DNA of 64,000 nt from Phytophthora colocasiae. Lineage: Eukaryota > Oomycota > Peronosporomycetes > Peronosporales > Peronosporaceae. The notes below the pieces were generated by a model, which saw only the letters and a program-made list of their open reading frames with translations, was not told the origin of the DNA and did no database searches. Both the position numbers and the translations under genes were made by a program. Where the stretch lies: NCBI GenBank assembly GCA_018806915.1, contig JAGKQI010000007.1, positions 186,001 to 250,000 on the forward strand, read 5' to 3'. Shown here piece after piece: positions 3,008-32,278 of the stretch (positions within the stretch are counted from its first letter, which is position 1; every line of letters starts with the position of its first letter).

Positions 3008-3467
3008 TGTAATGGGTCTGCTTAGACCTATTAGGTGGCGTACACGTGCGCTTACGTGTATGAGGAAGCGTGCAAGTAGAATAGACTTAATTTAAGTATA
3101 CTTATTTAAATAAGTATAATTAAATCAAATATAACAAAATTAACTGCAAAAATACCGTAAAAATGAGAACTGGTTTTGAATTTGGCACGAAGCCATTATG
3201 GAACCTCCTAAAACTAATTGATCTATATCTAAAGGCTCCGCCAACGTGTGGTTGGCATAAACTCTGCTCAATGATTGGTAGAAATCCGTTACTTTCTACC
3301 AATAACAGGCACAAATGCACACGTACCACCCAATGATGTGGTTCCCTCATGTAGCCATTGGTGTGTACAGCACACCAAGGTCTGAGGTCCCTTTCCAACC
3401 TCTAACAGTTATCGCAACTGTTAGAGTTACAAGTGGTATAACCACTTGTACGTTTAACCCCGTTACA
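3008..3467 (-). repeat. LTR of B1 (3' LTR in the element's reading direction)
   Basis: This 460-bp LTR begins TGTAATGGG and ends CGTTACA, and matches 27218-27676 and 36445-36904 nearly base for base. It contains several strong inverted repeats, such as the 11-bp arms ATTGGTAGAAA (3274-3284) and TTTCTACCAAT (3293-3303). Confidence 0.92.
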
Positions 3468-3486
3468 CCCCCCCCCCCCCCCCCCC
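3468..3486 (-). promoter_or_regulatory. Polypurine tract of B1: 19-nt G run on the coding strand
   Basis: Immediately inside the 3' LTR is an uninterrupted run of 19 C on the plus strand, that is 19 G on the element RNA. Position and purine content fit the plus-strand primer (PPT). Such a pure homopolymer is unusual. It may have lengthened by slippage, or its length may be a sequencing or assembly artefact. Confidence 0.75.
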
Positions 3487-3578
3487 GTTAAGATTCGACG
3501 TATCGGTCCCGATACGTCAATCGACAGAACTTGAAAAGACCGTCAAGTCCCCGAGAGAAAACTCGAGTTCATTTCGTA

Positions 3579-4444
3579 ATGGACTCGCCAACGCCCACGT
3601 CTTCGTCCGCTCCTGCGGACGCACAAGCCTCTCCTGCTGCCTCTGCAGCATGAACAACAACCTCAGCAGTGCCCACTAGCACTGCTGCTTCGAGAGGTTC
3701 GACAGAGAAGCTCTCTGTCACCGAGTACCATGCTCTCCACAATAGTCACGTCTTTGAGTCGGACACTGAAAGACGTGACTACTATTATCGGACTCTTCCA
3801 TGAGCTCCGATATTATGCAGCGAAGAAGACTTCGCGCAAAAGCAAAGTGCCAGAGTGGCAGGCACTTTGTCAGTCGTGGAACGCCTTTGTCGATAACTTC
3901 AACAAAGACCCGAAGGCGTATCGCGAGCGCGTTGTCGCGACTCGCGATCGCTACTACACTTACACTACTCGGGGTACGTGTGAACTCCTCCATGAACTAT
4001 GCATGGAAGCGAAGATCCCATGTGCCGTTCCCTTTGGCACATTCTGCCCGCTCTGCCAACCCTTGGCAGTACGTCTCTCCGAAAGTGACCTCCTGGGGTA
4101 CACGGACGACCATGTACCCGATCACAGCGAGTAGCTCCGTGCTCGTCTTAAGCCACGCGAAGCTCCGAGTGCTGTGGCTCCCTCCGCATGGTCAATGCTA
4201 TGACCATGACGATCGTGCCCTGCACGATCGAGTTGCTGCGCTGGAGCAGACACAGAGCGCTGAGATACCGGCTCTGAAGCAGGAGGTTCGTGTCCTCCGT
4301 GCTGAAGTTGGCCAGGCAGCTCAGACTGCCTCGAATCTCTCGTCCGGTCTCGGAACGAGAGTGAACCGGCTTGTCGACCGTGTCGACAGTCTCGAGAAGG
4401 CGTTCCAGGCCTCTCGCACTCTTCAGTCGGACTACCATCTCTAG
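3579..4444 (+). pseudogene. Antisense ORF of element B, between integrase and 3' LTR (broken)
   Basis: On the plus strand, opposite to gag-pol, an ATG at 3579 opens a Ser/Ala/Pro-rich N-terminus (MDSPTPTSSSAPADAQ). TGA codons follow at 3651 and 3801. Protein-like sequence continues in the next frame at about 3800-4040 (EWQALCQSWNAFVDNFNKDP) and then in the third frame to a TAG at 4442-4444. The last part (residues such as DRVAALEQTQ and LVDRVDSLEKAF) looks like a coiled coil. An ancestral ORF of about 285 codons with two frameshifts and one nonsense change would explain this. Product and function are unknown. The same location holds a large antisense ORF in family C. The alternative, that this is only shadow sequence of an untranslated 3' region, cannot be excluded from one copy. 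Confidence 0.5.
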
Positions 4445-5877
4445 GTAGTCCGTGCTGCACGAACGGCTTCAACCGCCCGACGTAGAAGGTCGGGTGGAGC
4501 CTCATGCTGGACGGTATATCCAGCAGGTACGCGTTACTATGCCGTTCAAGTACCTTGAACGGCCCAATGAATCTTGGAGCAAGCTTGCTTGCTCCAAAGT
4601 CTGACACTGCATGTTTAGGTAGGTTTTGTGTAGCTAACAAAACTAATGAACCCGCTTTGAATTCATTAACGTTGCCTCTACCAACAATATCAGCGTTCAG
4701 CTTCTGTCGATCGACAGAAGCTGCGATAGCATCCTGGACAAACCGTATGACGGCTTGTCTTCGCTGGACAAAGTCTAGCGCACTCGAGCTGACTCCTATC
4801 AGCTTGTCGCCTTTGTCAGCAGCAGGCCCTGCCTGCTCGCTATCATCTCTCATGCCTGTGCCCGGCACAGACATAGCGCGCTCGTTCCTGCAAGAACAAG
4901 ACGTCGCACGCGCCACCGCAGCTGATAGTGTGCTGCTATCAGTTGCATTCTGGACGCAACCGTAGATCCTCCTCCACTTGAGGAGGAAGCTACCCCACCG
5001 AGCATGCTCGGCAATCTTGGATGCCGCATGGAATTCACGTAGGACGGTGTATGCCCTGTCGATGCATGCACCGAGTTGTTGATGGCAAAATCTGCCATCG
5101 GCAAGCACTCGCTCCATTGCGGGAACGAGTGAGCGTAGCTCTTCAGCGTGTCACCCAATACACGGTTGACACGTTCGGTCTACCCGTCCGTCTGCGGATG
5201 ATCCGCAAGTCGACATTAATAACTGTGAACCAAGAAGTGTAAACACTTCTTGCCAGAACCGCGCTGTGAAGCGTGGATCACGGTCCGACACAATGTCGAG
5301 CGGCATGCCATGGTGTTTGAACATCATGTCAACAAACAGTCGCGCAGTCTGCGCGGCTGTAACAGAAGCCGGGACGGCAGCAAGATGAACCATCTTGCTG
5401 AATCTGTCTACAAAGATAACGATGCCCGTCCTCCGCTTGCTGTCAGGCGGAAGACCGAAGACAAAGTCCATGGACATGGACTGCCAACACTCCGACGGAG
5501 TCGGAAGTGACTGAAGAGGAGCCTGCGAGAACCGCGCAGGCTTCACGCGTTGACAAACCTCGCAAGTATGTACGTACTTGCGCACCCACTTGTACTGGTG
5601 GTGCCAGTAGAAGTCACGCGTGAGAAGAGTGTATGTCTTCTCACGACCCGGATGCCCTGTCGTAGGGGCATCGTGATACTCGAACATGATCCTCAACCGA
5701 AGGTCATGATCATTCGGAACGACAATGCGATCCGCATTGTCGTCTACTGCACTGTACAACAGTAGGCCTTCGTGTACACGATAGCGGTGTACAGGAGCCC
5801 GAAGATGAGGGGTTAGCTTCCGACGTGCCACGTCGGAAGGTGCTGCGTGGAACTCCAGCAGCCCCTTCGCGTCTGCA
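4122..5877 (-). pseudogene. Integrase of element B (broken)
   Basis: The zinc-binding HHCC is visible (EYHDAPTTGHPG, then HTCEVC) around 5620-5750. The core has MDFVFGLP (first Asp) and SDRDPRF (second Asp). The third catalytic segment QTDG-stop-TERVN near 5190 has a nonsense codon in place of Gln and a frame change before it. The end has FKAGSLVLL, FIGPFKVLE and HPTFYVGRLKPF, the GPF/Y module. No chromodomain follows, and the frame runs on opposite the end of the antisense ORF, so its true end is near 4440. Upstream, the reading joins the RNase H end at 23029 across the C1 insertion, with one frame change. The family inserts cDNA into the host genome. Confidence 0.82.
5874..5877. repeat. Target site duplication TGCA of element C1, left copy
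   Basis: TGCA precedes the LTR start TGTCGCG at 5878 and follows the other LTR end at 22998-23001. The duplication is 4 bp; extending to 5 bp gives no match. B pol reads on across the junction. Confidence 0.85.
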
Positions 5878-7562
5878 TGTCGCGAAGTCGGTGAAACTTT
5901 GGTCGCGGAGCAGGTGGAGTATAGTGAACCCTAGTTATACGACTACTAATAGGGGTTTTCAGAGCCGTACAACGGTAGGTTGGCGTGTGGTACCTTGCGG
6001 TATCCTCGTGGGTTCGTGGTCTTCTGAAATATGACCCTCGCCGGAGTCTGAGAATTTGTTATAAAGAGAAATTGGTGTTCCCTTGGAGTCTGGTGTCGGT
6101 ATTCAGGAAATCCTTCCAGGAGCGTTCGGGAGTCGGAATCTCTGGGAACCAAGATGGTTTCCAGGAAGTCGGCGGTCGAAAAGAGGTTAATGTACCAGAG
6201 AAAGTCTGAAATCGGTGTCTGAATATCACAAATCCAGAACCGAGATGCCTGACTTTCAGAGATAACCAACCAATACACAGAGTTCGAAAATATACAAATA
6301 TATACAGCCGTTCTTATTCTTTCTAGGCCCTTGAACGGTGGGCTAACACTCCAGGTCAACTAGGGACTTGCTACCAGACACCTGGTCTGTCTGGTACCCC
6401 TTTACGTTCGCGCACCACCCTCTAGTATAGAGGGAAAATATAAACCAATACAATCGGCTATATATAACAGTCTACCTTGCACTCTGAAAACGACTGTCTA
6501 GTTTCCAGAGCCTGTCCAAACGATCAATATGAAATGGGCTACCGCTAGAGACAAAACAAACGACCCAACTAGGATATGGAATAGGCGGGTCCTTTCAGGT
6601 CTCTCCGTTACCTGATCTCCGCCTAAGGGGATTGAATTTGGTGGAGATCACACGACGTACGTGATGACGCTGTGGCTTGAATACCTCTCAAGCGGACTTG
6701 TGCAGTAGCAAGCAAATTGAACTCTGTTTATCGTTTATCTTCCTCATAACTATCATATATCTCTGGTAACTCTCTTCTTCTTGTCGTCTTTTGCGTCCTT
6801 TATGCAGTCAGTCTTCATATCTCAGGTACTCTTGGTCTTTGTATACATCTGGTACTTTGACTTGGTCTCAGTATGCAGTCTGTGCAGCCGATCTCGATGG
6901 GTTAACAGGTAGAGACGTCATTACGGGGGATGTGCAGGTCAGTAATCACTTGAATGCGTGACTTGAACTTGGGTTCACTTGGTTTCAGTATGGTCTTGGA
7001 TCTTCGGTGATTTCAGAGTCCGGTATCCTGATTTTCAGAGTCTGATATCACTTGGTTTTCAGAGTCTTGGTCACTCAGAGTTGGAGATACCAGAGTTTTG
7101 AGTAAGAAACCAGAGTACGGAGCACTAATGCTTCAACGTACATGAAGATCTTGAGGGTTGCGCGGGTGCGCGGCGTCCGGCGCGCGATACTTGGTCTCTG
7201 TGAGTATATATTGCGAATCCTTGAACCATCCATCGTCGCGCTGGACGGTAACGGGATGAGGTCCCTCAGAGATACGTTCTTCTGAGAGACTTTCCGCCAG
7301 AACTTAGGCACTCATTGTCGGGGAAAGTCCGGTGACCAGACAGAGTGTAGTTGACCTTCAGAGTTGTGCACACTCTGAAGTACACTTCTGGTCTTTTGGG
7401 CCCCTTTACAGTCAGGCGAAGGTTTATCCACAATGTTCCACAGATGTCGCACGGGTACGGCCACGTCCCAAAGTCCCTTTCGCTTATAACCCATAGTATA
7501 ACCAATCACATCATAACGTAATATCCACCTGTCGCTCGAAAATCGGAATTAACATCATGTCA
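5878..7562 (-). repeat. LTR of C1, left copy (3' LTR in reading direction)
   Basis: This 1,685-bp LTR begins TGTCGCGAAG and ends CATCATGTCA. It differs from the right C1 LTR at many positions, mostly in the first 450 bp. It carries the type I version of a roughly 78-bp block (about 6637-6714) that is non-homologous to the type II block of C2. Because the antisense ORF starts 56 bp after it, this LTR would have to supply plus-strand promoter activity if that ORF is expressed. Confidence 0.92.
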
Positions 7563-7574
7563 ACCGCCCCTCCT
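7563..7574 (-). promoter_or_regulatory. Polypurine tract of C1
   Basis: On the coding strand the bases abutting the 3' LTR are AGGAGGGGCGGT, purine-rich and in the position of the plus-strand primer. The same sequence abuts the LTRs at 41482 and 56943. Confidence 0.7.
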
Positions 7575-7617
7575 GGTCACGATCCATCAGTGCGGAACTT
7601 TCTCCAAGCTGTGTATC

Positions 7618-10600
7618 ATGGCCAGGCCTATCAAACATTCTGATAGACGGTTTTCAGAGCGTAGCGTAGCTGCAACTCTTTGCCAGTTGCCTGGTTTTCA
7701 GAGTCTCTGGTGTCCTGTCGCACAATCTGATTCTCTCAGACTCAGAAACTTGCACTTGACTCGCCTAACAGGCGATCATTTTCAAACCTCCGTCCTTTCG
7801 CTCATGACTGAGGAAACAAACACTTCCCTGAGCTCAAACGCCCCAGCGAGTGGGGTGGCAGGCGACGCCACAGGCACTTGTCCTGCTTCGGCAACTGCCA
7901 GGATAGTGCAGGGTGGAGATGTTGGTTCAGCCACATCGCCAGGTGGCAGCCCTAGCGCTCCAGCCCATGTATCCAAGCCTACAGACCTACAGGTCGATGG
8001 CCCGATTGAGGACCTCCCTGGTGGTGACATGGACGCGGCCGGTTCTGGTGATCTCTCGCCACCAGTGGCCTCACGTGGGGAATCTCGCTCTGAATTCTCT
8101 GAGGGAACTCCTGGGGTCTTCAGACCGCGAGCCTTTGGTGCCCCACGGCTTTTGTCCACGGAAGAGGTCGATCGGCTGTTTCGTCAGGGTCTGGTGACAC
8201 CCACAGGAGACCAAGTCACGGCGTTGGGGGACTCTGATGTTCCCCAGAATTATGTCGCTCCCAACGTGAGACCGGAGGGACGTGCCTTTCTGGTGAGTAC
8301 CCCGGCGCGAGCTGAGGACTTCAGAAGAGGGCGCCACATAGCAAATGCGTACGGCGGCCCCTGTGTACTCGTGGGTTACGAGGCACTCTCTGATGAAGAC
8401 CTCCGGGAGCTGGAGCGAGTGATCCCAAGCTTCGATCCCGACGAGGTTGTGTCTCCATGTGCCCAAACTCCGGATGTACGCACTCTAGATGCTCTGACGT
8501 CATCCGTAGATGTTCGCCGGGAACTGGGATCTCTGGTTTCTCACGTCTCCCCCACCCGACTTGCTGAGAAGGTTTTTCGGACGGCTGAATGCTTGAAACT
8601 CATGGCTGCTGCTCACCGCCGCCTTCGAGAACGTGTTGGTTCTCAGAACGGCGTCGCCTTGATCGATGCGGCCGCAGCGCGCTCTGAATGCGAAGAAATC
8701 AAGCGCGAGTGGGTACTGCACTGTCAATACTGGAAGCACGAGCTTAAGTGTGCCCAGCAAGACGCCGGTGTGGTAGAAGAACGCATGGCCTCGGAGATTC
8801 AGGATCTCAACGCTCATTACCAGGACCAAGTGGAAGCTCTGAAGTCGGACAAGGCAGCTCTGAAGTCCCAAGTCGCTGATCTTCAAGCGCAGGTCTCTGA
8901 AGTCGCGTCCTGAGGTCAAGCCCACAGATCCGTGGGGGTTCTCAGAGTTCTTACAAGAGAATTCTGAAATCTCTGGTAATTGGGATCGGCTTCATGACCT
9001 TCTGGTGTCATACCAAGAGGACACCATCGTCCCTGATAACTGGACGACTATCATCAATGTGACAACCTTGGACGCGCGGAAGAAGCCCGTTCCTGACTTC
9101 AAGAAACGGCTCTCTGAAGAACGAGCTCGTCAGGCTGCCGAGGAAGCTGCGAAGGGTACCAGAGTTCTGGATCTCACCCGCCCAAGTGCTAAGGCCTCGG
9201 AGTCCAAGAGCGAGAGCCCACGGTATCTGTCATACCCGCCGAAGTCCCAGGTTCTGAAATCATCTCCTAAGCGGCCGTTCAAGTGGGACCTCAAGAATTT
9301 GCAGCGTCGTCCTTCCGGACACAAGCCCGTCGAAGACTCGGTGCTTTCGGCGAATGCAGGTTCCAAGGTGGCAAAGTCTGAAGTGCACAAGAGGCTCCCT
9401 GGTGACGTGGTCTGGAAAGAAGTCCGCCCTGACCTCCGCCAGGCCCTGCTGTCTGGGATCAAGTACGATAAAGCCATGGAGTGGTTGGCGTCGGACAAAG
9501 AGGCTCGCACTCTCTTTAGTAGTCCGGCTCTCATTCAGATGTTGGTGAGTCTGGTATTTTCTCGTCGTCTGGATTCCACTCTCTGGGCCAAGTACGTCCG
9601 TGAAGTGTATTACCAGATGGCCGACGAGGTGGTGGATCGTCACATCTCAGCTGGTACCGAGCCTGCAGCCTGGGGTGATCTGGATGGTCATGTGAATTAC
9701 CCGGAGAGTGATGTTGAGTCCACTGCCGATGACCCCAAGGACGACCCCGATTACAAAGATTCTGGTGCAGTCAAGTCTGAAGACGAAGATGACGACGAGA
9801 GCTCAGGTGACAGTGCGTCTGACGACAGCGATTCCGAGAGCGACAAGTCTAAGAACAAGAAGTCTGGGGACAAGAAATCTGGGGACAAGAAATCTGGAGA
9901 CAAGAAGTCCGGGAACAAGAAGTCAGGAGACAGGAAGTCTGGGAACAAGAAGTCCGACGACTACCCGCGTCCTGGTTCCAAGCGTCCCCGAGACTCTGAT
10001 GACGACTCGGACTCTGATGATGGGCCTATCATCCCCACCAAGAAGTCCAAGAGAAGTCTTGAGTCCATAAAAGCCCACACCAGTCCCAAGTCTCGCCCGA
10101 AATCCACCAGTGGAAGTGGGTCGAAGTCCAAGGGTTCTTCAGGGAAGGCACTTAGTCTGGTATCCAAGCCCTACAATTCTCTGGCGGTCAAGGAGCTCCA
10201 GGTGGTGGAAACACCAGACTGTGAGGCATCCTCCTGGTTGTACTATGGCATCAGAGTACAACGAGTGAGCTCCACTAGGACTACCACGGGCAAGACATTG
10301 AGTTCCCCAGACTACGAGGTACACAAGCACTCATGTGCCATCCTCAAGAAGCGCTGGGACTCTGAGCGGTACTGTGCGGTCATCCGCAAGAAGCGCGCCC
10401 CTTGGGAAGTCATGTTCGACAACAGATTCTCAGAATTTTACTTCCACAAGCGGGAAGAACTGGGGCCCATGGTGTTGGCTGACGTAGAAGACATTGTGCG
10501 CAGCATGAAGAAGCACGCTCAAGCCTTCTGGGAGCGAACGCATTGGGTGACCATGGATGTTGAGGCTGACGACAAGTCTGCGGAGCTTCACAAGTACCGG

Positions 10601-10948
10601 TCCATGCGTCGAGCCGCCATGATTCGTCAACACAACGCCCTCATCCGAAAGGTCCTGGAGCACAAAGATTTCCCAGAGTCGTTGCTTTCAGAGCCTGGTA
10701 TCTGGGTTGTCCCAGACAAGTCCTGCCCTTGGATCTGGCAAGATCCCAGAGTCGCAGAGCTGGGGGGGCCCAAGTGTCTGAGTCTAGAGACGCAACTGGG
10801 TGACTTGGATGCGATTGAGCCTGCTCGGATGCAATGGGCCACGGTGAATGTGGACGAAGAGTGGCTCCAGTACGTCCCCGCTGACGTCAAGAAGGATCAT
10901 TTGACACCTACGGAGCGTTCCGAGAACCCGATCTCCCTTCGCTACTGA
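7618..10948 (+). pseudogene. Antisense ORF of C1 (about 1,110 codons, one frameshift)
   Basis: This large ORF is on the strand opposite to gag-pol, between the 3' LTR and the integrase. It is open at 7618-8913 and then 9005-10948. A 5-bp deletion near 8898, relative to C2 and C3, breaks the frame. The ATG at 7618 is the first in frame; the ATG at 7804 (MTEETNTSLS) is an equally good start. Order of parts: a low-complexity Ser/Pro/Gly N-terminus; a globular part; a coiled coil (ALKSDKAALKSQVADLQAQV); a basic segment; an acidic Asp/Ser tract; 7 units of KKSGD (9857-9961); basic patches KRPRDSDDD and KKSKR that resemble nuclear signals; and a Trp-rich C-terminal domain (for example SSWLYYGIRVQ, GIWVVPDKSC). 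No known family is recognised. The frame is preserved over three copies apart from separate point lesions, which suggests it once coded. Antisense ORFs at the same place are known in some plant Tat elements. Confidence 0.75.
9857..9961 (+). repeat. 15-bp coding minisatellite, 7 units (KKSGD)
   Basis: Seven units encoding KKSGD-like pentapeptides in the antisense ORF. C2 has 9 units (43781-43915) and C3 has 8 (59235-59354), so unit number changes between copies while the frame is kept. Confidence 0.9.
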
Positions 10949-11333
10949 AGCTCAGGTGTCCACCATGGTGGCCACGGGAAGGCTGCATTTTCGAGAAGCC
11001 AAATAGTTGTCTGCATTTGTGACGTAAACCCCTGGCCTCAGTGTAGCTTCCTAATCCCTTAATCTTTCAATATCATTCCACGTAATCACACTTCTTCTCA
11101 TCATCTCATTGTTCATAACTTCGTATCCTCCAGCACTTAATTCTCCACAAACTCACTTCCATATTCACATTCACACAGTCGTTTTATATAAGCAGTAACA
11201 TGGTCGATCACATATCCAAACGCACGACTTTCAGAAATAGGTCTCTGAAAACACGCACTCAGACTACCACACTCTAAAAGTCAATGTCTGAAATCTTTCA
11301 GATATCAGACTTTTAGATGTGTTTTCAGAGTTA
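10949..11333. other. Spacer between convergent antisense ORF and integrase (C1)
   Basis: About 385 bp of AT-rich, pyrimidine-rich plus strand with no ORF. The two coding regions point towards each other across it, so it should hold the 3' ends of both messages. Its last 100 bp contain several TCAGA/TCTGA words typical of this family. The counterparts are 44894-45275 and 60342-60723. Confidence 0.6.
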
Positions 11334-12794
11334 TTAGACTCTGGGGTGATCGTCTCCAGCCTGCATCGCCTGAAAACGGGCTCGTGCTCGTGCACTCTGG
11401 TTGAATTCGTAAAGTAATGCTCCACAGTTCAACTTCGATAACGGTAACCACTCCGTTTCATCGTAACCTTTCCACTTAATCAGATATTCGCGCAGGCGTC
11501 TGGACGTCCTGGTACGCTTGTTCCAGCGGGTATCCAGATTTTTCTCCACTTCATACTCGTCGTTTTCAGTGTCAGGTTCCCAACTATCTTCTGGTAACAG
11601 GGCGGCGTCAAAGTCATCATCTTCTGGAATCTGGAGCTCCACCGTGGGTCGTCTGGGGAACAGAGCCCTTGGCTTCAGACGGCTCACATGTACCCAGGGG
11701 TTCACGCGGTAGCCGGTATCTTCAACCTTGAGTCGTATTCTGAAATCGTCCAGCATCTCCTCGATCCTGAAGGGTCCGTGCCACATGTGTGCTAGTTTTC
11801 TGCTCAATCCCGTTTGTACCTTAGGGATGTAGAGCCATACGGCGTCGCCTATAGCGAAACCTGACTTCAGACGCTCTGATAACTCGTTCCACTTTCTGGT
11901 CTGTTCTTCAGACCGGTCACGCTTTGCCTTCTTCTGGAGATCTTCGGCACATGCCAGAGCATAGCTATAATCTCGTTGCATCTTCCTTCTCCATTCGTAC
12001 GCAGTTCGCTCCTGAGTCGTCGATGGCTTGGGTCCAAGCATAGCGGACACCGTCCCGTGAGCATCCCAACCATGTACCAGGTAGAAAGGCGTTTCCAGAC
12101 GGGTGGCATCGAATGACGTATTCAGGGCGAACATCAGACGTTCGGCGTGGTCATCCCAGTCACTTTGATCAGCTTCAGAGATATATGCCTTAATCGCGCG
12201 CACCACAGTCTGTACTGATCTCTCTTGCTGGCCGTTGGCTTGAGGCCGGTATCCTAGAGTAGCTCGTTGTCTGCTACCCAAAAGTTCCCTGAAACACTTG
12301 AACACCTCACTCATAAAGCGAGGATCTTGATCATGACGAATCAGAGAGCTAGCTCCAAAGTTTCTGAAAACGCGTTCCTCATAAGCCTCTGCTACATCCT
12401 GAGCAGTGGTGACACTCATTGGCTTGCACATCACGTATCCTGAATACATATCCTGGAACAGCAAGAGAAATGTGTTTCCACGTGCTGATTTCGGCATGTG
12501 AGTCACAAAATCCATAGACACCACTTCAAACGGCCGGCTGGGCTCAATATTTCCAGGGGACGGTCCAGGATTTGGGGGTCGCCCCTTGCCACTGGCACAG
12601 TCCACACATTCCTTCCCAAATCTCTCCACATCAGCATACATACCCAGCCAGTAAAACTCCGAACTCAGCTTCTCAAAGGTTCTCCTAATTCCCTGATGTC
12701 CACCTTGGTAATCTTCATGAGCATAGTGCAACAAGTCTGGATACAAGTCTCTGGGAACCACCAGTCTGAGTTCGTCAACATTGTCCCGGGGCCC
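11334..12794 (-). CDS. Integrase with C-terminal chromodomain, C1
   Basis: This part of pol is open from the frame junction at 12788-12794 to the stop at 11334 (475 codons from the Met at 12761). The zinc-binding module reads LLHYAHEDYQGGHQG ... CVDCASG (HHCC). The core has SMDFVTHMP (D), RHDQDPRFM (D) and NGQQERSVQ (E), a DD35E-type triad. The C-terminal module has WHGPFRIEEML (GPF/Y). A chromodomain follows (EYLIKWKGYDETEWLPLSKL), which in this family directs integration through histone marks. This is the best preserved gene of the copy. The start of the domain lies upstream in a different frame: the reading upstream runs through into an unrelated 40-codon tail in all three C copies. Confidence 0.88.
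   Translation of the reverse strand, partial: GPRDNVDELRLVVPRDLYPDLLHYAHEDYQGGHQGIRRTFEKLSSEFYWLGMYADVERFGKECVDCASGKGRPPNPGPSPGNIEPSRPFEVVSMDFVTHMPKSARGNTFLLLFQDMYSGYVMCKPMSVTTAQDVAEAYEERVFRNFGASSLIRHDQDPRFMSEVFKCFRELLGSRQRATLGYRPQANGQQERSVQTVVRAIKAYISEADQSDWDDHAERLMFALNTSFDATRLETPFYLVHGWDAHGTVSAMLGPKPSTTQERTAYEWRRKMQRDYSYALACAEDLQKKAKRDRSEEQTRKWNELSERLKSGFAIGDAVWLYIPKVQTGLSRKLAHMWHGPFRIEEMLDDFRIRLKVEDTGYRVNPWVHVSRLKPRALFPRRPTVELQIPEDDDFDAALLPEDSWEPDTENDEYEVEKNLDTRWNKRTRTSRRLREYLIKWKGYDETEWLPLSKLNCGALLYEFNQSARARARFQAMQAGDDHPRV
12788..12794 (-). promoter_or_regulatory. Candidate -1 slippery heptamer GGGCCCC between RNase H and integrase frames
   Basis: On the coding strand the upstream frame reads GAG GGC CCC and the integrase is in the -1 frame. 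GGGCCCC has the X XXY YYZ pattern in the right phase and sits where homology to integrase changes frame. It is identical in C2 (46724-46730) and C3 (62167-62173). It may instead be an inherited 2-bp insertion, because the RT/RNase H junction shows a similar shared shift with no heptamer. Confidence 0.4.
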
Positions 12795-14150
12795 TCTCGA
12801 GTAGCGCGACTCAGACGATAAAGTACATCTCTAAAATCCAGAACGAAGTCCTCAGCAACTCTGGCAAGCTTCCTGACTCGGGGTCGTGGTAAATCTCCCA
12901 CGTCGCCCTTCAGAAACTTCATGGAGCTCAACCAAGTGCGGGTCCTGAGCTCTGATGCGCCTTAATCCGTCGCCAGCGTTCTGCTCTGGAACTCCAAAGC
13001 GCCCCAAAGGTTCTCGTTCGTCATCGTCCTCAGGCGGATTAGCATCAAGCGGAGCTTGGGGCACGGGTTACGGCAACCAATATTCTAACTGATCGAGGCA
13101 GGGGTGCGGATTCCGGACCAGAAGCATCCTCAGATTCTGGTGACGCATTATGATTTTCAGAGTCTGGTATCTTTGACTCTTGAACTTCCATGTTCGGGAC
13201 TGAACGAGGCTTCATCAGTTTCTCATGAACTTTGGATACCAGCTGCAGGTGCATAAGTTCATCCTCATCTTGTACTCGCCAAGCTTCCCCAAGGGTCAAA
13301 GTCTTCGAGGTCAGGTAATCCGCCGCTTGGTTGAACTCGCGCTTCACATGCACCAACTTCAGAGTCTGAAACTTGGTTTTCAGAGTCTCAAATTCGGCCA
13401 ACCTCCGTTGCAAGTTAGGCTGATTGCAGTTGATCAATCCCTGAGCCTGCTGTATCGCGATGCGTGAGTCTCCTACAACCACCAGCTCCTGTATTTCGTA
13501 CTCGAGCGCCATCTTCAGACCATAATTCAGGCCACAGTACTCTGAATCGTTCACTGTGACATCCGCCAGGGGAAATCCTCGGGCGTCCAGAACACTCCAC
13601 CCCGGGAGTTCCCAGAGTATACACCCACAGCTTCCCAGACGAGTAGACGTCTTTGCGGCACCGTCAAAACTCAGAACATAACCCTGATAATCTGCTTCCA
13701 ACATTTCCACACTGATAGGAACTGGCGGCTTGACTCGCCCTTTGACTGGAATCAGATTTTCAGAGACTTCATCCAGATGCTCCCTAGGAGTTATGCCTGC
13801 GCCGAGTATAGCTGGGAGTCCATCTTCATCACGCTGGATCCGGCGGATCTCCAAGTTCCACTGCGACAGCTTCAGACCCCACTTGACGTTTCTGCCGTCG
13901 GTGGAACTCGATGTCAGCAACCATTTCAGGACAGAGTATCTGGTATAAACCACAATCACCGGACTCGACTCCACCAGAGCTCTGAAGTTTTCCAAAACTC
14001 TAAGGATCGCAATCACCTCCTTCTCAGCGATATGATACCTGAGCTCGGCGTCATTCAGGACACGACCTGTGAACCGGACCGGGTGTATTATTCCCTCATA
14101 TTCTTGTCCCAAGACTGCCGAAGCAGCCCAAGGGTCGCATGCGGAATGAC
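12795..14150 (-). pseudogene. RNase H (degenerate Ty3 type) plus second RNase H (archaeal/plant type), C1
   Basis: Open mainly at 13045-14112. The first part aligns with the Ty3 RNase H (ELRYHIAEKEVIAILRVLE), but the first catalytic Asp region reads IPHAT and the third reads VYTRYSVLKWLL with Arg in place of Asp. A second RNase H follows: SFDGAAK, NDSEYCGL, VVGDSRIA and NQAADYLTS give the D, E, D, D set of the archaeal/plant-type enzyme. A linker with poly-acidic PPEDDDERE leads to the integrase. C1 has single-base insertions around 12940-13060. Elements with such a second RNase H are known from plants (Tat) and oomycetes. The change of frame from RT near 14130 is shared by all three C copies. 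Confidence 0.82.
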
Positions 14151-15272
14151 AACAAACGGTCTGGTTCGGTCTGGATGTCTGAGTAGTGGAGTAGAGACTA
14201 TCTTGCGTTTCAGAATCTCGAATGCCTCTTTCGCACGAGTCAGGTCTCGTCCAGCACGAATCTGCTCGTCTGTCAGCTCATAGAGAGTAGCAGCGATCAC
14301 CGGTAAATCCTCAATAAACTTGTTGTAATAATTGAGGCTTCCCATAAAACTCTGTACCCCCTTCAACGTAGACGGAAATGGCAGTTCTTCAACTTCTTTG
14401 ACGATCTTGGGTGTTGCCCTCAGACCCTCGGCACTGATTTCGTGGGATAGGTACGGTATCGACAACTTCCCGAACTCGCTCTTGGGCAAACTCACAGAAA
14501 TGTTCCAATAGCGAAGTCTGAAATGCAGGGCGTTCAAGTCGTCACATAATTGGTCCTAAGTCGGTGCTCCATGTGCGATGTCGTCGATGTATGAACTCCT
14601 CCCCAGGACTGGGCCCATGCATGTGGGGACGGGAATATTCCTCTGAAAGACGGTCATCTGACTTGTGAGTGCTGGCATCTCTGAAATCGGAGTATGGTTC
14701 TCAGAGTCTGAAAGATGCTTCTCAGAGTCCTGAGGCTGGAGTTGTAGGAATTCCAGAACCTCCGCATCAACTTCAGCTTCTTCTTCTGGTGACAGTCTCA
14801 CGAATCCCTACAGGCAATTGTCCAACATAGCCTGATACACAAGAGGGGCGTTCTTCAGACCAAACGGCATCCTTACCCACTGAAAATGCCCAAACGGGCA
14901 AATGAAGGCTGATATCAGTCGTGCACGCTCCGTCATCCTGATCGCCCAGAAACCGCTAGCCATATCCAGACTCATGAACCACATAGCAGCCTTAAAACCG
15001 ATTAGGAGGTCGTCAATAAGAGGTAGAGGGTAGCGCGACAGTTGAATGAAGCCATTCACAATGCGATAGTCGATGCACATTCGTATGTCAACACCATTCT
15101 TCTTGAGAACGATCACAATAGGAGATGCCCACGGGGAGTTAGAGTACTCGATCAAACCAGTTTCCAGAAGTTTCTTCAGAAGCTCGTACACCTTCAGCAT
15201 GAGATGGGGAGCGACGGACCTCGGACGTTGAGCTACCGGCTTGGCATCTCCCACATCTAGATCACAGACCAC
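14088..15272 (-). pseudogene. Reverse transcriptase, C1 (two stops)
   Basis: RT landmarks: NSPWASPIVIVLKKNGVDIR, MCIDYRIVNGF, YPLPLIDDLL, SLDMASGFWAI (catalytic Asp of motif A), PFGHFQWVRMPFGLKNAP (motif B region) and SSYIDDIAHG (two catalytic Asp). A roughly 65-residue acidic insertion separates the motif B region from YIDD, where Ty3 relatives have only about 25 residues. Stops at 14808 (TAG for Trp) and 14556 (TAG for Trp) interrupt the frame. Both are intact in C2, whose RT (48006-49118) is open throughout. Confidence 0.85.
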
Positions 15273-16999
15273 GCCGCATTACCGTCTCCCAGGAATATTT
15301 TTGTGTGGCGTTTCAGAATATCACGCAGTCTCTTCTCCATTTCTGGGGTCGTCTTTCCCGGTTCCTTAACATCAGCGCTATCAATGTCACACTCTGGTGT
15401 CAACTCTTCCAGCTCTGGTAGCATGACCAATTGATCGCGTAATTGGGCAAGGAGTTCCGTGCCTTCTCGCATATACACACCTGGCTCCAAGTCTAACTCT
15501 TCGCTCGAAACGTTCATACACCGCTCGTATTCCACTCGTAACTTTTCCATCGGCGTTCCAGGCATTCCCTGAATGGGGATATCCCAAGATTCATCCATTA
15601 AGTCGAAATCATCCGCGGGTAACTCAGGAGTCTGAGGATCCTCTAGGAGACACTCGGTTTTTGAGTCAAGGACATCATCGTCGAAAGCAACAGACGTGTC
15701 ACCAGGGTCGGTAGGCGAAGTACTTTCAGAGAATGTTTCCAAATCTCTGGTATCTGTACTGATATCCACACTTCCCGTCGATTCACTGTGGCAACCATCC
15801 TCTGTCTGGGTGGATGCATCCAGGGCGAAGCGCACTCGCTTCACGGTCGGTGGTGAATCTGGTTTCACGAACTGCACTCGAGCGTTGTCGAACCTTGGAC
15901 GTTGCAGTATTTCAGTCGGCCATGGGTAGTCTGGGCGATCTACACACGGGGGTTGCGGCATCAGAGCTTCCAACTCCGCCTCTCTCTTCATACGTTTCTT
16001 AGTCTCTGGTGACGGGGTGCTTTCCAGAATCAGAACTTCCCAGTCACGATAAGCAGCGGAACCTGGACGCACGAAACGTCCATGCCTTGGGAAGAAACCA
16101 TATTCCACGATCCTCGCAACATCGGAGAGTTCATTGACCCACGTGTTCTTATCAGAGATATTTACCACGCGAACGGCCACAGGCCAAGATCGAGCCGCAT
16201 AGATCAGCTGGGTTACCCAGCGATCACCGCGTCCGGCCCACACGACTTCCCTCTGGGGGTTCGTTGGGCCATAGTCAATTCGGACAATAAACTCCTCACC
16301 CCGACTCAGAAGGACAGCCTCGCTTGGTCTAACCGACCTGTTGCGACCAATGTGATCACCAGGTTCCCAATTACACATCATCACCACTACCTCGTCCGGT
16401 AACGACACCAGACCTTCACGAGCGCTAATTCTCACTCCAGCAGCAAACATAAAACCCATTCCCAGAAGCACGTCAATTCCTTCACCGATATTCGCGACCC
16501 AAACATCCACAATATATACCACTCTTGGCCCAAGTGTCAATTTGATCTCAGCGGTGGCACCAATATATGTTGGAACATGCTTGTGCGACTTAAGTCTGAG
16601 TCCGAGCTTACGCGCAAAGTCGTAACTCAGAATATTTATGGTCGCACCAGTATCCAAGAGAATCTTGGTCCGATGGTCATTCACAGCACCATACACCATC
16701 ACCACATCCCTCTTTGACCGATCAGGGTAGTTGTCCTCCCACCAGCCATAACACTCGCCATCCTTCAACTTGAACGACACTGTGTCGTCTGGTGTTTGGT
16801 CGGTGTTTTCGGCGATCTCAGGTAACTCGTTCCCTGAGTTTCCAGAAGATATGGTCGATTCTTGGGCAAAAGTAGTCATGCATTGTTGAATGTTATCTTG
16901 AGTCTTTCTCAGCTCTGGTCCTACACACACTAGAACACACAACTCTGGGGTAACGCCATGCCCGGCGCGTTTCGGATCCCCATCCGACGGGCATATTAG
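15257..16999 (-). CDS. Aspartic protease and linker (start of pol), C1
   Basis: The reading enters by a -1 shift from gag at 16999-17005 and is open to 15257. The active site is LLDTGATINILSYDF (Asp-Thr-Gly) with VLLGMGFMF as the flap-side ILG-type motif. About 350 residues of linker follow, including an RVRFALDA segment and acidic stretches. The end is altered: relative to C2, 19 bp between CGCC repeats near 15274 have been lost. This cuts the connection to RT and creates the stop at 15257. In the family this enzyme cleaves the Gag-Pol precursor. There is no in-frame ATG until 16942, so frameshift entry is more plausible than separate initiation. Confidence 0.85.
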   Translation of the reverse strand, partial: LICPSDGDPKRAGHGVTPELCVLVCVGPELRKTQDNIQQCMTTFAQESTISSGNSGNELPEIAENTDQTPDDTVSFKLKDGECYGWWEDNYPDRSKRDVVMVYGAVNDHRTKILLDTGATINILSYDFARKLGLRLKSHKHVPTYIGATAEIKLTLGPRVVYIVDVWVANIGEGIDVLLGMGFMFAAGVRISAREGLVSLPDEVVVMMCNWEPGDHIGRNRSVRPSEAVLLSRGEEFIVRIDYGPTNPQREVVWAGRGDRWVTQLIYAARSWPVAVRVVNISDKNTWVNELSDVARIVEYGFFPRHGRFVRPGSAAYRDWEVLILESTPSPETKKRMKREAELEALMPQPPCVDRPDYPWPTEILQRPRFDNARVQFVKPDSPPTVKRVRFALDASTQTEDGCHSESTGSVDISTDTRDLETFSESTSPTDPGDTSVAFDDDVLDSKTECLLEDPQTPELPADDFDLMDESWDIPIQGMPGTPMEKLRVEYERCMNVSSEELDLEPGVYMREGTELLAQLRDQLVMLPELEELTPECDIDSADVKEPGKTTPEMEKRLRDILKRHTKIFLGDGNAAWSVI

Positions 17000-17005
17000 T
17001 TTAAC
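16958..17005 (-). promoter_or_regulatory. Gag-pro -1 ribosomal frameshift signal, C1
   Basis: The gag frame ends CCG TTA AAC TAA. The heptamer GTTAAAC (16999-17005) has the phase G TTA AAC and is a known -1 slip site in other viruses. The -1 frame is open from there into protease. After a 4-nt gap an RNA fold spans 16958-16994: a 7-bp outer stem ATGCCCG/CGGGCAT, a 6-bp inner hairpin TCGGAT/ATCCGA with loop GGGG, and a 7-nt bulge AACGCGC on the 3' side. The loop can pair with CCCC a few bases downstream (possible pseudoknot). Confidence 0.82.
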
Positions 17006-18635
17006 GGCTTCCCAGAGTCTGCCTCATCACCCAGGAGTTTCTCCCGTAGGTGGTTCGGCATGTCCTTGAGTGCGCCTTGTCGAGCGAGTTGCTTGAGTGC
17101 TTCCAGCGTTTTCAGATCTTCACAGGGTTTTCCAGGGTGTACTCTTCCATATACTTCACAGGGTGGCATCCGACACATTCGACTCGGGTGTCCCTTCTCC
17201 TGGCATCGGTCACACGTGACATCTCTCCAGCAATCTTCCTCTGAGTGTCCTGAGCGTTGACATTTTTCACAGAACTTGTTCCAGTAGCCACTATTCTCAT
17301 GACGTCTCTGGTGGAATCCTTGACCTGACGATCCAGACGGGGACTGGGGCGGCGGACGCCATCCCATGTTATCCATCACTCGATATACCTCATTCGTCAG
17401 AGTCTGCGTCCAATCTGCACTTGGTGAAGCCTTCGAATTGTTCGAAGATGCCTGCGCAGTACTTTTATCACGAGTAGACTCTGAAGTCGCACTTGGAGTT
17501 CTGGAATCACCCGTCTGATCTCTGGTATCCTGATTGGATTTCAGAGATTCCTTATGATTTTCAGAGTTTTCAGAGTCATAGTCTTCAGAATCCATATCTC
17601 TTGCGACATAAGTCCGATGCACACGCTTGGGCTTGAACTGTCCTCGCGGAATATTGTCAGCCCGGAAATCTCGAGACTTGGTAGGGGTCATCTCTTGGTC
17701 ACCAGTTCGCCACACGTCTTCATCTTGCTGCAACGCATATTCCAAGTCTGAAATTCGTGAAATCTCTGACCTTGCAGCGACGTTTTCAGGCGTGCATCCT
17801 TAAGCTTCGTGATGAATCGCAGTACATGCTTTTCAAGACGCTTGGACGACTTCCGGAAATCGATGTCAGCTTTTCCGGCGGCAGAATTAAGTCGGTAGAA
17901 AAATTCAAGCGGAGTCTCAGAATCTTTCATAGCCACAGTGAAGTATCTCTCAGAATACGATGACCGAGCTTTGCAATAACGTTTCTTGAACTCTGAAGAC
18001 AGCTCTTTCCAGTCACGGGACACACTTTTGGGAAGCTGGTTAAACCAGTCTCGCGCAGACACAGGGAGCTTCAACTTAAGTTCCTGGATGCGCGTCTTAG
18101 TCGACCAACCTCCTTGAGAAGCCATATTCGTAAACCGCTCCCACCAGTGGACACGTTCCCTGAGTGTAGCTCTGGGGTCGAATTCTCCAAGGTTGTTGGA
18201 GTTCATGAACGGCCTCAGTGTCAGAAGTGTGGTTCCGGCCTGTGCTTGAGTTGCTGCCGTCAGGTTCACCACTTCACCTGGCTCCGAGTTTTCTGATGAC
18301 GAGCTCGCAGAGTCTGAGCTCGAGTTATCGGAGTCTCCGCCAGAGTCTGGCGCTCCATCATGACGTTTCTCTCTGCGAGACGCTCTTCGATCTCCATTAG
18401 GCCGTCTAGCCTCAGTTCTCTGCGGCGGATCTCGTCTCGGAGTAGGCGCACGTCTAGTATCACCCTTGGTCTCTGTCACCAAGGTCGCTTGAGTCACCTG
18501 GGTGGCCGTAGCAGTAGTAGCGCCGCCATTCCTCTCCGCCTTCACTCGCTTCGTTACCGTGCTTCGTGCAGGGGTGCCTTGCTGGAAGGTTGCAACCTCT
18601 CGAGATTCCGTCTTGAGGACCGGTGAATGTGACAT
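16996..18635 (-). pseudogene. Gag (capsid and zinc-knuckle nucleocapsid), C1, one frameshift
   Basis: The ATG at 18635 (MSHSPVLKTESRE) is followed by a basic then acidic Ser-rich region, a retrotransposon-Gag capsid region (HWWERFTNMASQGGW, ARDWFNQLPKSV, PLEFFYRLNSAAG) and zinc knuckles CEKCQRSGHSEEDC and CDRCQEKGHPSRMC (CX2CX4HX4C). A third, CEVYGRVHPGKPC, has lost its second Cys (C2 has CEVCGRVHPGKPC). A one-base deletion near 17757, absent from C2, breaks the frame. The start overlaps the end of ORF1 by 82 bp in the -1 frame. Gag forms the particle and binds the RNA. Confidence 0.85.
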
Positions 18636-21226: not shown

Positions 21227-21299
21227 CTTGAATATAGACGCTTGACAGGAAACTTTCTCCTCTTGTACTCTCAAATCCGGTGATATCACGATTCCAAAG

Positions 21300-21317
21300 A
21301 TCCGGGCACGCGCACCA
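21300..21317 (-). promoter_or_regulatory. Primer-binding site of C1, 18 nt
   Basis: The plus strand reads ATCCGGGCACGCGCACCA, two bases from the 5' LTR. It equals the last 18 nt of a tRNA (T-arm 3' strand, acceptor CACGCGC, discriminator A, CCA). 18 nt is the length expected if copying of the primer stops at m1A58. The tRNA species cannot be named. Confidence 0.85.
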
Positions 21318-21319
21318 GT

Positions 21320-22997
21320 TGTCGCGAAGTCGGTGAAACTTTGGTCGCGGAGCAGGGGGCGTATAGTGAACCCTAGTTATACGACTACTGAAAAGGGGTT
21401 TTCAGAGCCGTACAACGGTAGGTTGGCGTGTGGTACCTTGCGGTATCCTCGTGGGTTCGTTGTCTTCGGAAATATGACCCTCGCCGGAGTCTGATAATGT
21501 GTTTGTGAAGAGAAGTTGGGGTTCCCTTGGAGTCTGGTGTCGGTATTCAGGAAATCCTTCCAGGAGCGTTCGGGAGTCGGAATCTCTGGGAACCAAGATG
21601 GTTTCCAGGAAGTCGGCGGTCGAAAAGAGGTTAATATACCAGAGAAAAGTCTGAAATCGGTGTCTGAATATCACAAATCCAGAACCGAGATACCTGACTT
21701 TCAGAGATAAACAACCAATATACAGAGTTCGAGAATATAAAAATATATACATTCTTTCTAGGCCCTTGAACGGTAGGCTAACACTCCAGGTCAACTAGGG
21801 ACTTGCTACCAGACACCTGATCTGTCTGGTATCCCTTTACGTTCGCGCAACACCCTCTAGTATAGAAAGAAAATATAAACCAATACAATCGGCTATATAT
21901 AACAGTCTACCTTGCACTCTGAAAACGACTGTCTAGTTTCCAGAGCCTGTCCAAACGATCAATATGAAATGGGCTACCGCTAGAGACAAAACAAACGACC
22001 CAACTAGGATATGGAATAGGCGGGTCCTTTCAGGTCTCTCCGTTACCTGATCTCCGCCTAAGGGGATTGAATTTGGTGGAGATCACACGACGTACGTGAT
22101 GACGCTGTGGCTTGAATACCTCTCAAGCGGACTTGTGCAGTAGCAAGCAAATTGAACTCTGTTTATCGTTTATCTTCCTCATAACTATCATATATCTCTG
22201 GTAACTCTCTTCTTCTTGTCGTCTTTTGCGTCCTTTATGCAGTCAGTCTTCATATCTCAGGTACTCTTGGTCTTTGTATACATCTGGTACTTTGACTTGG
22301 TCTCAGTATGCAGTCTGTGCAGCCGATCTTGATGGGTTAACAGGTAGAGACGTCATTACGGGGGATGTGCAGGTCAGTAATCACTTGAATGCGTGACTTG
22401 AACTTGGGTTCACTTGGTTTCAGTATGGTCTTGGATCTTCGGTGATTTCAGAGTCCGGTATCCTGATTTTCAGAGTCTGATATCACTTGGTTTTCAGAGT
22501 CTTGGTCACTCAGAGTTAGAGAGACCAGAGTTTTGAGTAAGAAACCAGAGTACGGAGCACTAATGCTTCAACGTACATGAAGATCTTGAGGGTTGCGCGG
22601 GTGCGCGGCGTCCGGCGCGCGATACTTGGTCTCTGTGAGTATATATTGTGAATCCTTGAACCATCCATCGTCGCGCTGGACGGTAACGGGATGAGGTCTC
22701 TCAGAGATACGTTCTTCTGAGAGACTTTCCGCCAGAACTTAGGCACTCATCGTCGGGGAAAGTCCGGTGACCAGACACAGTGTAGTTGACCTTCAGAGTT
22801 GTGCACACTCTGAAGTACACTTCTGGTCTTTTGGGCCCCTTTACAGTCAGGCGAAGGTTTATCCACAATCTTCCACAGATGTCGCACGGGTGCGGCCGCG
22901 TCCCAAAATCCCTTTCGCTTATAACCCATAGTATAACCAATCACATCATAACGTAATATCCACCTGTCGCTCGAAAATCGGAATTAACATCATGTCA
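21320..22997 (-). repeat. LTR of C1, right copy (5' LTR in reading direction)
   Basis: 1,678 bp, TGTCGCG to ATGTCA, with the type I block at about 22073-22149. Its right part, beyond a point corresponding to 31444, is the source of the right part of the hybrid LTR 30570-32247. Confidence 0.92.
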
Positions 22998-23001
22998 TGC
23001 A
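22998..23001. repeat. Target site duplication TGCA of C1, right copy
   Basis: Matches 5874-5877. It is copied again at 32248-32251 as part of the tandem duplication. Confidence 0.85.
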
Positions 23002-23028
23002 TCCCTTGCATACGCGTTCTTCACGTCG

Positions 23029-25407: not shown

Positions 25408-25518
25408 TACCTTCTCTCAGGTGAATCGCATTCACCTGACCATCACTCATGTGACAAACATCATTCAGATGTTTATGCGTCAGGTGATTATCATTCACCT
25501 GACCATCACTCATGTGAC
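25380..25518. repeat. Tandem 9-bp repeat and spaced 27-bp direct repeat between PR and RT of B1
   Basis: CCGGTAATA is repeated about three times at 25381-25405. A 27-bp sequence at 25429-25455 recurs exactly at 25492-25518. Each 27-bp copy contains the inverted pair CAGGTGA/TCACCTG with its neighbours and places a TGA in the PR frame. The same arrangement is in B2 (34627-34765). Confidence 0.8.
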
Positions 25519-27168: not shown

Positions 27169-27197
27169 ACGAACGAACAGCAGTCGGTCGTGGGACG

Positions 27198-27215: not shown

Positions 27216-27217
27216 GG

Positions 27218-27676: not shown

Positions 27677-27681
27677 CAGCC

Positions 27682-32247: not shown

Positions 32248-32278
32248 TGCATCCCTTGCATACGCGTTCTTCACGTCG

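What the first reader, a model, noticed from the sequence alone, without database searches (positions are those of the whole stretch)
3008..5877. Element B is built of short inverted repeats spaced about 25-40 bp apart
Reading B, nearly every 25-40 bp there is a perfect or near-perfect inverted repeat with 5-13 bp arms and a 0-10 nt loop. Examples: GACGTATCGG/CCGATACGTC (3497-3518); a palindrome with 13-bp arms centred at 4710/4711; ATTGGTAGAAA/TTTCTACCAAT in the LTR (3274-3303); CCACGTACTTG/CAAGTACGTGG (23625-23648); AAGGAACTG/CAGTTCCTT (23656-23676); GTGAGAGGGA/TCCCTCTCAC (24053-24074). They occur in gag, PR, RT, integrase, the antisense ORF and the LTR alike, so codon choice is not the cause. 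A and C, in the same window, do not look like this. Possible causes are selection for a structured RNA (packaging signals, RNase or RNAi behaviour) or template switching by the reverse transcriptase that perfects quasi-palindromes.
Basis: partly seen in the sequence, partly recalled or inferred. Interest (0 to 1): 0.86.

Follow-up and report, generated by a model that had tools for sequence, protein, structure and literature searches.

The report
Retrotransposon studded with short perfect hairpins
A jumping gene in what is probably a Phytophthora genome is studded from end to end with perfect little hairpins of about nine base pairs, and comparison of its copies and protein relatives suggests that natural selection keeps them and that they have shaped its proteins.

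Summary
Element B (3008-5877 plus 22998-27677, split by nested element A) is a Ty3-type LTR retrotransposon. It holds 60 perfect inverted repeats with arms of 9 or more; dinucleotide shuffles give about 0.3. Codon-preserving shuffles of the pol ORF give 0.32 against 23. A's internal part, flanking DNA and the 8 other RT loci fetched lack it; all 30 B loci fetched (26 places) have it. Arms of 8 or more peak at 9 bp; loops are 0-11.

One-copy mutations hit arms and spacers alike. Variants shared between copies are depleted in arms, at third codon positions and outside ORFs too. Pol proteins of Phytophthora relatives can encode over half of B's hairpins at 68-95% identity; Globisporangium relatives 7-9%. 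A second family, D (61-63% aa identity), shows a thinner excess at other positions.

Best reading: selection for global short-hairpin structure, like viral genome-scale ordered RNA structure but more extreme, in a retrotransposon. Arm-copying by template switching is not supported. Which strand or molecule is selected, and why, is open.

The parts
3008..3468 (-). LTR of B (3' LTR in sense; coding strand is the window minus strand). Holds hairpins such as 3090-3125, 3274-3303, 3400-3426 and 3428-3450
   Evidence: 98.5% identical over 461 bp to 27218-27677; hairpin list
4122..5117 (-). C-terminal pol ORF with SH3_Tf2-1 domain, hairpin-rich
   Evidence: Pfam PF24626 E 3.7e-14; codon-shuffle MFED 34.4% sense, 32.7% antisense
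5151..5831 (-). Integrase (H2C2 zinc finger and rve core), hairpin-rich
   Evidence: PF17921 4.8e-20, PF00665 2e-9; hairpin list
3469..5877 (.). Left internal part of B, from the LTR to the insertion point of A
   Evidence: Hairpin list; 41 perfect IR with arms>=7 and loop<=10 in 3008-5877, LTR included
5878..22997 (.). Element A nested in B; not part of the hairpin trait, its internal part used as a control
   Evidence: Self-comparison; 4-bp TSD TGCA; internal part near shuffles for arms>=7
22998..27217 (.). Right internal part of B (pol, gag side)
   Evidence: 59 IR with arms>=8 vs 0.7 in shuffles for 22998-27677
23029..25407 (-). RT-RNase H ORF (792 aa, no stop), 39 non-overlapping hairpins with arms>=7
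   Evidence: PF00078, PF17919, PF17917; codon-preserving shuffle test; hairpin count
26275..27162 (-). Gag-side region matching residues 2-306 of a P. ramorum polyprotein; four in-frame TAG in this copy
   Evidence: place C26:212275-213162 (window position 1 = C26:186001)
27218..27677 (-). LTR of B (5' LTR in sense)
   Evidence: 4-bp target-site duplication AGCC on both sides of B
32248..36905 (.). Duplicate of the right part of B with its LTR; same hairpin excess
   Evidence: 44 IR with arms>=9 vs 0.2

Best explanation
B belongs to a Ty3-type LTR retrotransposon lineage whose whole sequence (LTR, gag, pol, integrase) is selected to carry a dense series of independent, self-contained, perfectly Watson-Crick hairpins with stems of about 7-11 bp. 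Shown here by sequence statistics: the excess, its restriction to the elements, constraint on the arms in shared variants, a matching imprint on pol proteins of Phytophthora relatives, and the same kind of excess at other positions in family D. Inferred: the single-stranded nucleic acid of the element (RNA genome/mRNA, perhaps also its complement) is shielded by this folding, as proposed for genome-scale ordered RNA structure in RNA viruses. Stems stay short, so there are no long duplexes. Individual hairpins are replaceable over long times; density is what matters.
For: Excess beyond dinucleotide and codon-preserving shuffles. In three alignments (11, 22 and 14 rows) singleton variants per site: spacer 0.083, arm 0.086, loop 0.098; shared variants 0.040, 0.024, 0.072 (Fisher against singletons, arm vs spacer p=0.0017, loop vs spacer p=0.061). 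Shared plus fixed variants at third codon positions: arm 18/465, spacer 74/763, loop 15/113 (arm vs spacer p=1e-4); outside the three ORFs 66/1173, 197/1971, 53/310 (p=1e-5); first and second positions 32/921 vs 79/1539 (p=0.057). Arm codons are more conserved in 84 Phytophthora-group proteins, 0.885 vs 0.803, reached by 1 of 588 circular shifts. B's pol hairpins are encodable in 141/270 cases at 68-74% identity in the Phytophthora group against 5/56 in Globisporangium. Protein hairpin-feasibility ratio 1.70 in 48 Phytophthora proteins, 1.01 in 34 Globisporangium, 1.26 in 92 unnamed (176 of 218 scored). Family D: arms>=8 12 vs 0.6, with 0 of 28 B hairpins intact in D and 0 of 10 D hairpins intact in B. 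Codon-shuffle MFED 30-39% in pol.
Against: RNA structure was not measured. Strand evidence conflicts: sense G.U is tolerated more than sense A.C in shared and window-fixed variants (41:21, private 63:65, p=0.03) and in relatives' proteins (16 vs 4 sites, 11 ties; controls 8 vs 11). But standing hairpins hold more sense A.C than G.U (43 vs 26; 8 vs 4 among mismatches shared by 80% of copies), and antisense folding gain in pol is larger (39.3 vs 30.3%). Wobble pairs are rarer than in ordinary RNA helices (recalled). In Globisporangium, arm codons are also somewhat more conserved (0.696 vs 0.643, 55 of 588 shifts higher), and the arm effect is not significantly larger in Phytophthora than there (113 of 588 shifts). 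Two Phytophthora-group proteins at 62-68% identity encode only 3/33 hairpins. Family D has little folding gain (4.4% sense). Aa-level covariation between arms is not significant. DNA of relatives from other species could not be reached.
Confidence: 0.6

Rival explanations
1. Template switching or fold-back copying by the element's reverse transcriptase (or a host polymerase) writes one arm from the other and keeps perfecting quasi-palindromes; the hairpins have no function.
For: Arms are perfect with sharp ends: pairing at +2 to +8 beyond the arm is 0.18-0.36, near chance. G.U is rare. The Nematomorpha paper considers the same mechanism (passages). Even in sparse family D there is no excess of 6-bp arms and a clear one from 7 bp. 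Eleven paired double changes private to one copy were counted beside 195 private single breaks, more than I would expect by chance (inference).
Against: Shared variants are rarer in arms than in spacers; arm-copying predicts equal rates with paired changes. Paired double changes are 3 (window copy) and 6 (shared) beside 63 and 37 single breaks, and 15 of the 21 double-change rows listed lie in one local repeat that may be misaligned. B-D identity differs no more between the two arms of a hairpin (0.175, 21 hairpins) than between control windows (0.169). Arm codons are no less similar to Globisporangium than the rest, 0.696 vs 0.643. A's internal part in the same host lacks the excess.
Confidence: 0.15
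2. The hairpins are an anti-silencing shield on both strands: the sense target and antisense small RNAs cut from the element are self-structured, so guides and targets pair poorly; stems stay below the length that Dicer or dsRNA sensors recognise.
For: No consistent strand preference in the pairing. 25-mers at or below -4 kcal/mol: 50-53% of the left part of B (copy L039) against 29-31% in its shuffle and 32-34% in A. P. infestans makes 21 and 25/26-nt small RNAs, most of all mapping to LTR retrotransposons (abstract and passages of PMC3522703). Only 4 of 110 stems reach 12 bp.
Against: Only 12-13% of 21-mers and 21-22% of 25-mers contain a full 6-bp perfect hairpin, so cover is partial. No small-RNA data were examined.
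Confidence: 0.25
3. Selection acts on single-stranded cDNA or on DNA cruciforms rather than on RNA.
For: Rarity of wobble pairs, more sense A.C than G.U in standing hairpins, and greater folding gain of the antisense strand in pol.
Against: Shared variants and protein-level data favour sense G.U over sense A.C.
Confidence: 0.15
4. Dispersed packaging or Gag-binding signals.
For: Hairpins spread over the whole element.
Against: No dominant loop motif or shared arm among 110 hairpins; positions not kept in family D.
Confidence: 0.05

Closest known systems
[quoted passage not shown] abstract and passages seen)
   Same: Hundreds of stem-loops along coding sequence; positions poorly conserved between relatives; paired sites less variable; long duplexes avoided (paper: often interrupted above 14 consecutive pairs; here 4 of 110 stems reach 12 bp)
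   Different: Here an LTR retrotransposon in a cellular genome. Stems are uninterrupted and almost purely Watson-Crick. Codon-shuffle MFED is 30-39% in pol against about 15% for SARS-CoV-2 and a maximum of 23.4% quoted there for vertebrate RNA viruses (shuffling and windows not identical). Both strands are structured; no host-persistence link was tested
Coding palindromes of Nematomorpha mitochondria (PMC6649704; abstract, passages and first of three parts of Results seen)
   Same: Many perfect inverted repeats inside conserved coding sequence, nearly all long ones perfect
   Different: There 110 repeats of at least 15 bp, mean 43 bp, on average 37 bp apart, at least 48 species-specific, with a phase effect on length. 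Here arms are 7-13 bp, loops 0-11, no codon-phase preference (16/14/12), and many sites remain encodable across the Phytophthora group
Ty3/gypsy LTR retrotransposons of oomycetes
   Same: LTRs, RT-RNase H-integrase order, SH3_Tf2-1 domain, 4-bp target-site duplication
   Different: The eight other RT loci tested in the same genome (L001-L008) and A's internal part lack the hairpin trait

Membership tests
Ty3-type LTR retrotransposon | Two near-identical LTRs and a target-site duplication | tested here: met
   98.5% over 461 bp; AGCC on both sides
Ty3-type LTR retrotransposon | RT-RNase H upstream of integrase | tested here: met
   Pfam hits and order on the minus strand
Ty3-type LTR retrotransposon | tRNA primer-binding site and polypurine tract | tested here: inconclusive
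   Sequence next to the LTRs inspected: an 18-G run precedes the 3' LTR in sense; no tRNA match was tested
GORS | Folding energy far below sequence-order-randomised controls along the whole genome | tested here: met
   MFED 27-45% by dinucleotide shuffle in 250-nt windows, 30-39% by codon shuffle in pol; predictions only
GORS | Pairing positions turn over between relatives | tested here: met
   0 of 28 B hairpins intact in D and 0 of 10 reverse; but many sites stay encodable within the Phytophthora B group
GORS | Lower diversity at paired sites | tested here: met
   (shared variants; not in singletons)
GORS | Genome of a positive-strand RNA virus | tested here: not met
   LTR retrotransposon; so it works like GORS but is not filed as a member
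GORS | Structure shown in the RNA by probing | not testable with these tools
   No SHAPE data
Template-switch quasi-palindrome correction | One arm rewritten from the other (asymmetric divergence from relatives) | tested here: not met
   0.175 vs 0.169 in controls, 21 hairpins
Template-switch quasi-palindrome correction | Frequent paired changes in both arms | tested here: not met
   Paired double changes against single breaks: window copy 3 against 63, shared 6 against 37, private 11 against 195; 15 of 21 listed double-change rows lie in a local repeat
Nematomorpha-type coding palindromes | Long arms (15 bp and more) | tested here: not met
   Longest arm 13 bp among 110

The most novel reading that the evidence does not exclude
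An LTR retrotransposon lineage has adopted a second, element-wide code: every part of it must form ~9-bp perfect hairpins on both strands. This bends amino-acid evolution, persists across Phytophthora, and acts as armour against small-RNA silencing by making both target and guide self-structured.
Probability: 0.25. Interest if true: 0.93.

Novelty: new variant of a known kind. Interest (0 to 1): 0.85.

Why it matters
If it holds, a retrotransposon shows stronger element-wide structuring than the RNA-virus values quoted in the one GORS paper opened here, strong enough to leave a mark on protein sequence. It would extend genome-scale ordered structure from RNA viruses to LTR retrotransposons. 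It would also make the question 'what is such structure for?' testable inside one genome, where B (dense), D (sparse) and A or L007/L008 (none) face the same host silencing machinery.

Tried and rejected
Template-switch perfection: tested by rates, double changes and arm asymmetry and not supported. Codon choice: rejected by codon-preserving shuffles and by hairpins in LTR and non-ORF parts. Sense-RNA-only selection: wobble tests point both ways. Aa-level covariation between arms in relatives: 28 hairpins, 0.097 with s.e. 0.069, not significant. Loop or arm motifs: none dominant. Periodic spacing: sd/mean about 0.53, no sharper than I would expect for random placement with exclusion (the exclusion argument is inference).

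Related DNA elsewhere: viral contigs twice and genome contigs once gave no relatives. Whole-genome searches with P0004 and P0050 gave what look like B-family places again (only L052 of the unfamiliar ones was fetched and is B, 94%); P0132 gave family D. An early comparison mixed strands; its cross-orientation rows are void and were replaced.

Weaknesses: site counts treat related copies as independent. One search counts a 124-bp overlap of two alignments twice (one search does not). In some searches hairpin columns were called from the copies themselves. Columns with letters in fewer than 70% of the other copies, or with a gap in the window copy, were dropped. Feasibility calls used only listed proteins: 120 of 951 hits and 120 of 876, 218 in all, 176 long enough. 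Taxon groups come from source names and were sorted by hand.

Literature: nine searches showed no title or abstract start that reports this trait in a retrotransposon, but only the listed papers were seen (for example 8 of 1,171), most subscription papers are not held, and three papers were opened (abstracts, passages, one Results part).
Full report
What is there. The window (C26:186001-250000 of an unnamed 92.5-Mb, 105-contig genome) holds nested LTR elements. Element B runs from 3008 to 27677 and is interrupted by element A (5878-22997; TGCA on both sides). B has LTRs 3008-3468 and 27218-27677 (98.5% alike) and AGCC on both sides. Its genes lie on the minus strand: RT-RNase H 23029-25407, integrase 5151-5831, SH3_Tf2-1 domain 4122-5117, and a gag-side region 26275-27162 that has four in-frame TAG in this copy. 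The nearest named proteins are from Phytophthora species, so the host is probably Phytophthora (inference).

The observation. Perfect inverted repeats with loop 10 or less far exceed dinucleotide shuffles in both parts of B (arms>=9: 17 vs 0.1 and 43 vs 0.2). They do not in 1-3007 or 27678-30568, nor for arms>=7 in A's internal part; A's internal part has a slight excess of arms>=6 (49 vs 31.6) and A's LTR holds two arms>=9 (0.1 expected). Protein- and codon-preserving shuffles of the pol ORF give 0.32 against 23. The 30 B loci fetched (L009-L038; 26 places) show 10.4-18.6 repeats with arms>=7 per kb, against 0-1.3 in the 8 other RT loci. Among 110 non-overlapping hairpins with arms>=8 in pieces of two other B copies, arm lengths are 8:27, 9:43, 10:24, 11:12, 12:3, 13:1 and loops 0-11; no loop or arm motif dominates; hairpins with arms>=6 cover about half the sequence. 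Pairing beyond the arm falls to near chance at once. The trait stops at the element borders: flanks of B are at chance, and 13 of 15 arms>=8 repeats in the two loci flanking D's pol lie within its LTR-to-LTR span.

Is it selected? I compared copies in three alignments (11, 22 and 14 rows). Variants seen in one copy only, taken as mostly post-insertion (inference), are spread evenly: spacer 0.083, arm 0.086, loop 0.098 per site. Variants shared by two or more copies, taken as arising in active lineages, are not: 0.040, 0.024, 0.072; differences of the window copy from at least 85% of the others likewise 0.045, 0.028, 0.068. Against singletons, arm versus spacer gives Fisher p 0.0017 and 0.0016; the loop excess p 0.061. 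Shared plus fixed variants at third codon positions: spacer 0.097, arm 0.039, loop 0.133 (p=1e-4); outside the three ORFs 0.100, 0.056, 0.171 (p=1e-5); at first and second positions 0.051, 0.035, 0.095 (p=0.057). So protein constraint alone does not explain it. The copies are related, so the p-values are optimistic. Two D copies 4% apart differ in arms at 2 of 295 or 7 of 325 sites (by which copy defines the hairpins) against about 4.4% in spacers; this comparison is biased towards arms that agree.

How old is it? No DNA of other species could be reached, so I asked of each related Pol protein whether some choice of synonymous codons could form B's hairpins. At 68-74% identity to B, proteins of the Phytophthora group can encode 141 of 270, unnamed environmental ones 44 of 196, Globisporangium 5 of 56; two Phytophthora-group proteins at 62-68% encode only 3 of 33, Globisporangium 11 of 157 there. 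Sites where B could form a hairpin but has none are less contrasted: for 9-bp arms, 55% encodable in the Phytophthora group and 32% in Globisporangium, against 63% and 6% for real hairpins. Arm codons are more conserved than others in the Phytophthora group (0.885 vs 0.803; 1 of 588 circular shifts as extreme). In Globisporangium they are 0.696 vs 0.643, not significant, and the difference between the two groups is not significant either (113 of 588 shifts). Without reference to B's sites, the number of possible 9-bp hairpins over amino-acid-shuffled controls averages 1.70 in 48 Phytophthora proteins (1.72 in the 13 with identity up to 72%), 1.01 in 34 Globisporangium, 1.26 in 92 unnamed; one Peronospora protein has 1.63 (176 of 218 proteins scored). 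The simplest reading is that the hairpin demand has left a mark on amino-acid sequence.

A second family. A search with P0132 led to family D (L053-L055; 61-63% aa identity to B pol, about 67% nucleotide identity in the best BLAST match in RT, 63% in the full alignment). It also has the excess, more thinly: arms>=8 12 vs 0.6 and arms>=9 8 vs 0.2 in L053, and by codon shuffle in its pol arms>=8 8 vs 0.76. Aligned to B, none of 28 B hairpins is intact in D and none of 10 D hairpins in B: the trait is shared, the sites are not. D's predicted folding gain is small (4.4% sense, 7.3% antisense). RT loci at 34-35% identity (L007, L008) lack the trait.

Mechanism. Arm-copying predicts paired changes at the neutral rate and one arm resembling relatives more than the other. 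Neither is seen, though 11 private paired changes remain partly unexplained (most listed rows lie in a local repeat). Selection for pairing fits. On which molecule is unsettled. For sense RNA: shared and window-fixed variants favour sense G.U over A.C 41:21, against 63:65 in private ones; by substitution type 51:32 in arms against 105:120 in spacers (sums of rows); relatives' losses favour G.U at 16 of 20 decided sites, controls 8 of 19. Against: standing hairpins hold more sense A.C (43) than G.U (26), old shared mismatches 8 to 4, and antisense folding gain is 39.3% against 30.3% in pol. Selection on both strands, or on cDNA, stays possible. The function (shielding from small RNAs or nucleases, compaction) is inference. 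P. infestans makes abundant 21 and 25/26-nt small RNAs, mostly from LTR retrotransposons (PMC3522703, abstract and passages), so silencing pressure is plausible.

Comparison. The closest concept is genome-scale ordered RNA structure: SARS-CoV-2 MFED about 15%, highest quoted vertebrate RNA virus 23.4%, positions poorly conserved, paired sites less variable, duplexes over 14 bp often interrupted (PMC7642675, abstract and passages). B works like that but is a retrotransposon, with purer and discrete stems and 30-39% in pol (shuffling and windows differ). Nematomorpha mitochondrial coding palindromes (PMC6649704) share perfection inside coding sequence, but their arms are much longer and at least 48 of 110 are species-specific.

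Noticed in passing
21319-41481: 30569-41481 repeats 21319-32247 at 98.6%: LTR of A, right part of B and 27678-30568 are duplicated in tandem, joined at LTRs of A.
   Followed up: partly
3469-3486: An 18-base run of G (sense) stands directly before the 3' LTR of B, where a polypurine tract is expected.
   Followed up: no
25130-25260: Two tandem paralogous units each hold two hairpins whose arms differ while pairing is largely kept: a small natural covariation case. It may also misalign between copies; 15 of the 21 double-change rows lie there.
   Followed up: partly
3742-3750 and 4178-4179: The window copy lacks about 436 bp and 252 bp that copy L039 has at these points.
   Followed up: no
L039 5303-5564: About 130 bp of pol (window 24746-24875) match twice in succession in L039; a subset of copies has a pol match that breaks at residues 178-223.
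   Followed up: no
L057:1916 to L056:2382: Family D has 165-bp LTRs at 99.4% identity, and its hairpins include the LTRs.
   Followed up: partly
P0129-P0134, P0136, P0144, P0053: These unnamed Pol proteins at 55-71% identity to B have hairpin-feasibility ratios of 1.47-1.92; in the seven of these nine checked, only 1-4 of 17 B hairpins are encodable. Further hairpin families may exist outside Phytophthora.
   Followed up: partly
5878-7562: The LTR of A holds two inverted repeats with arms>=9 where 0.1 is expected.
   Followed up: no
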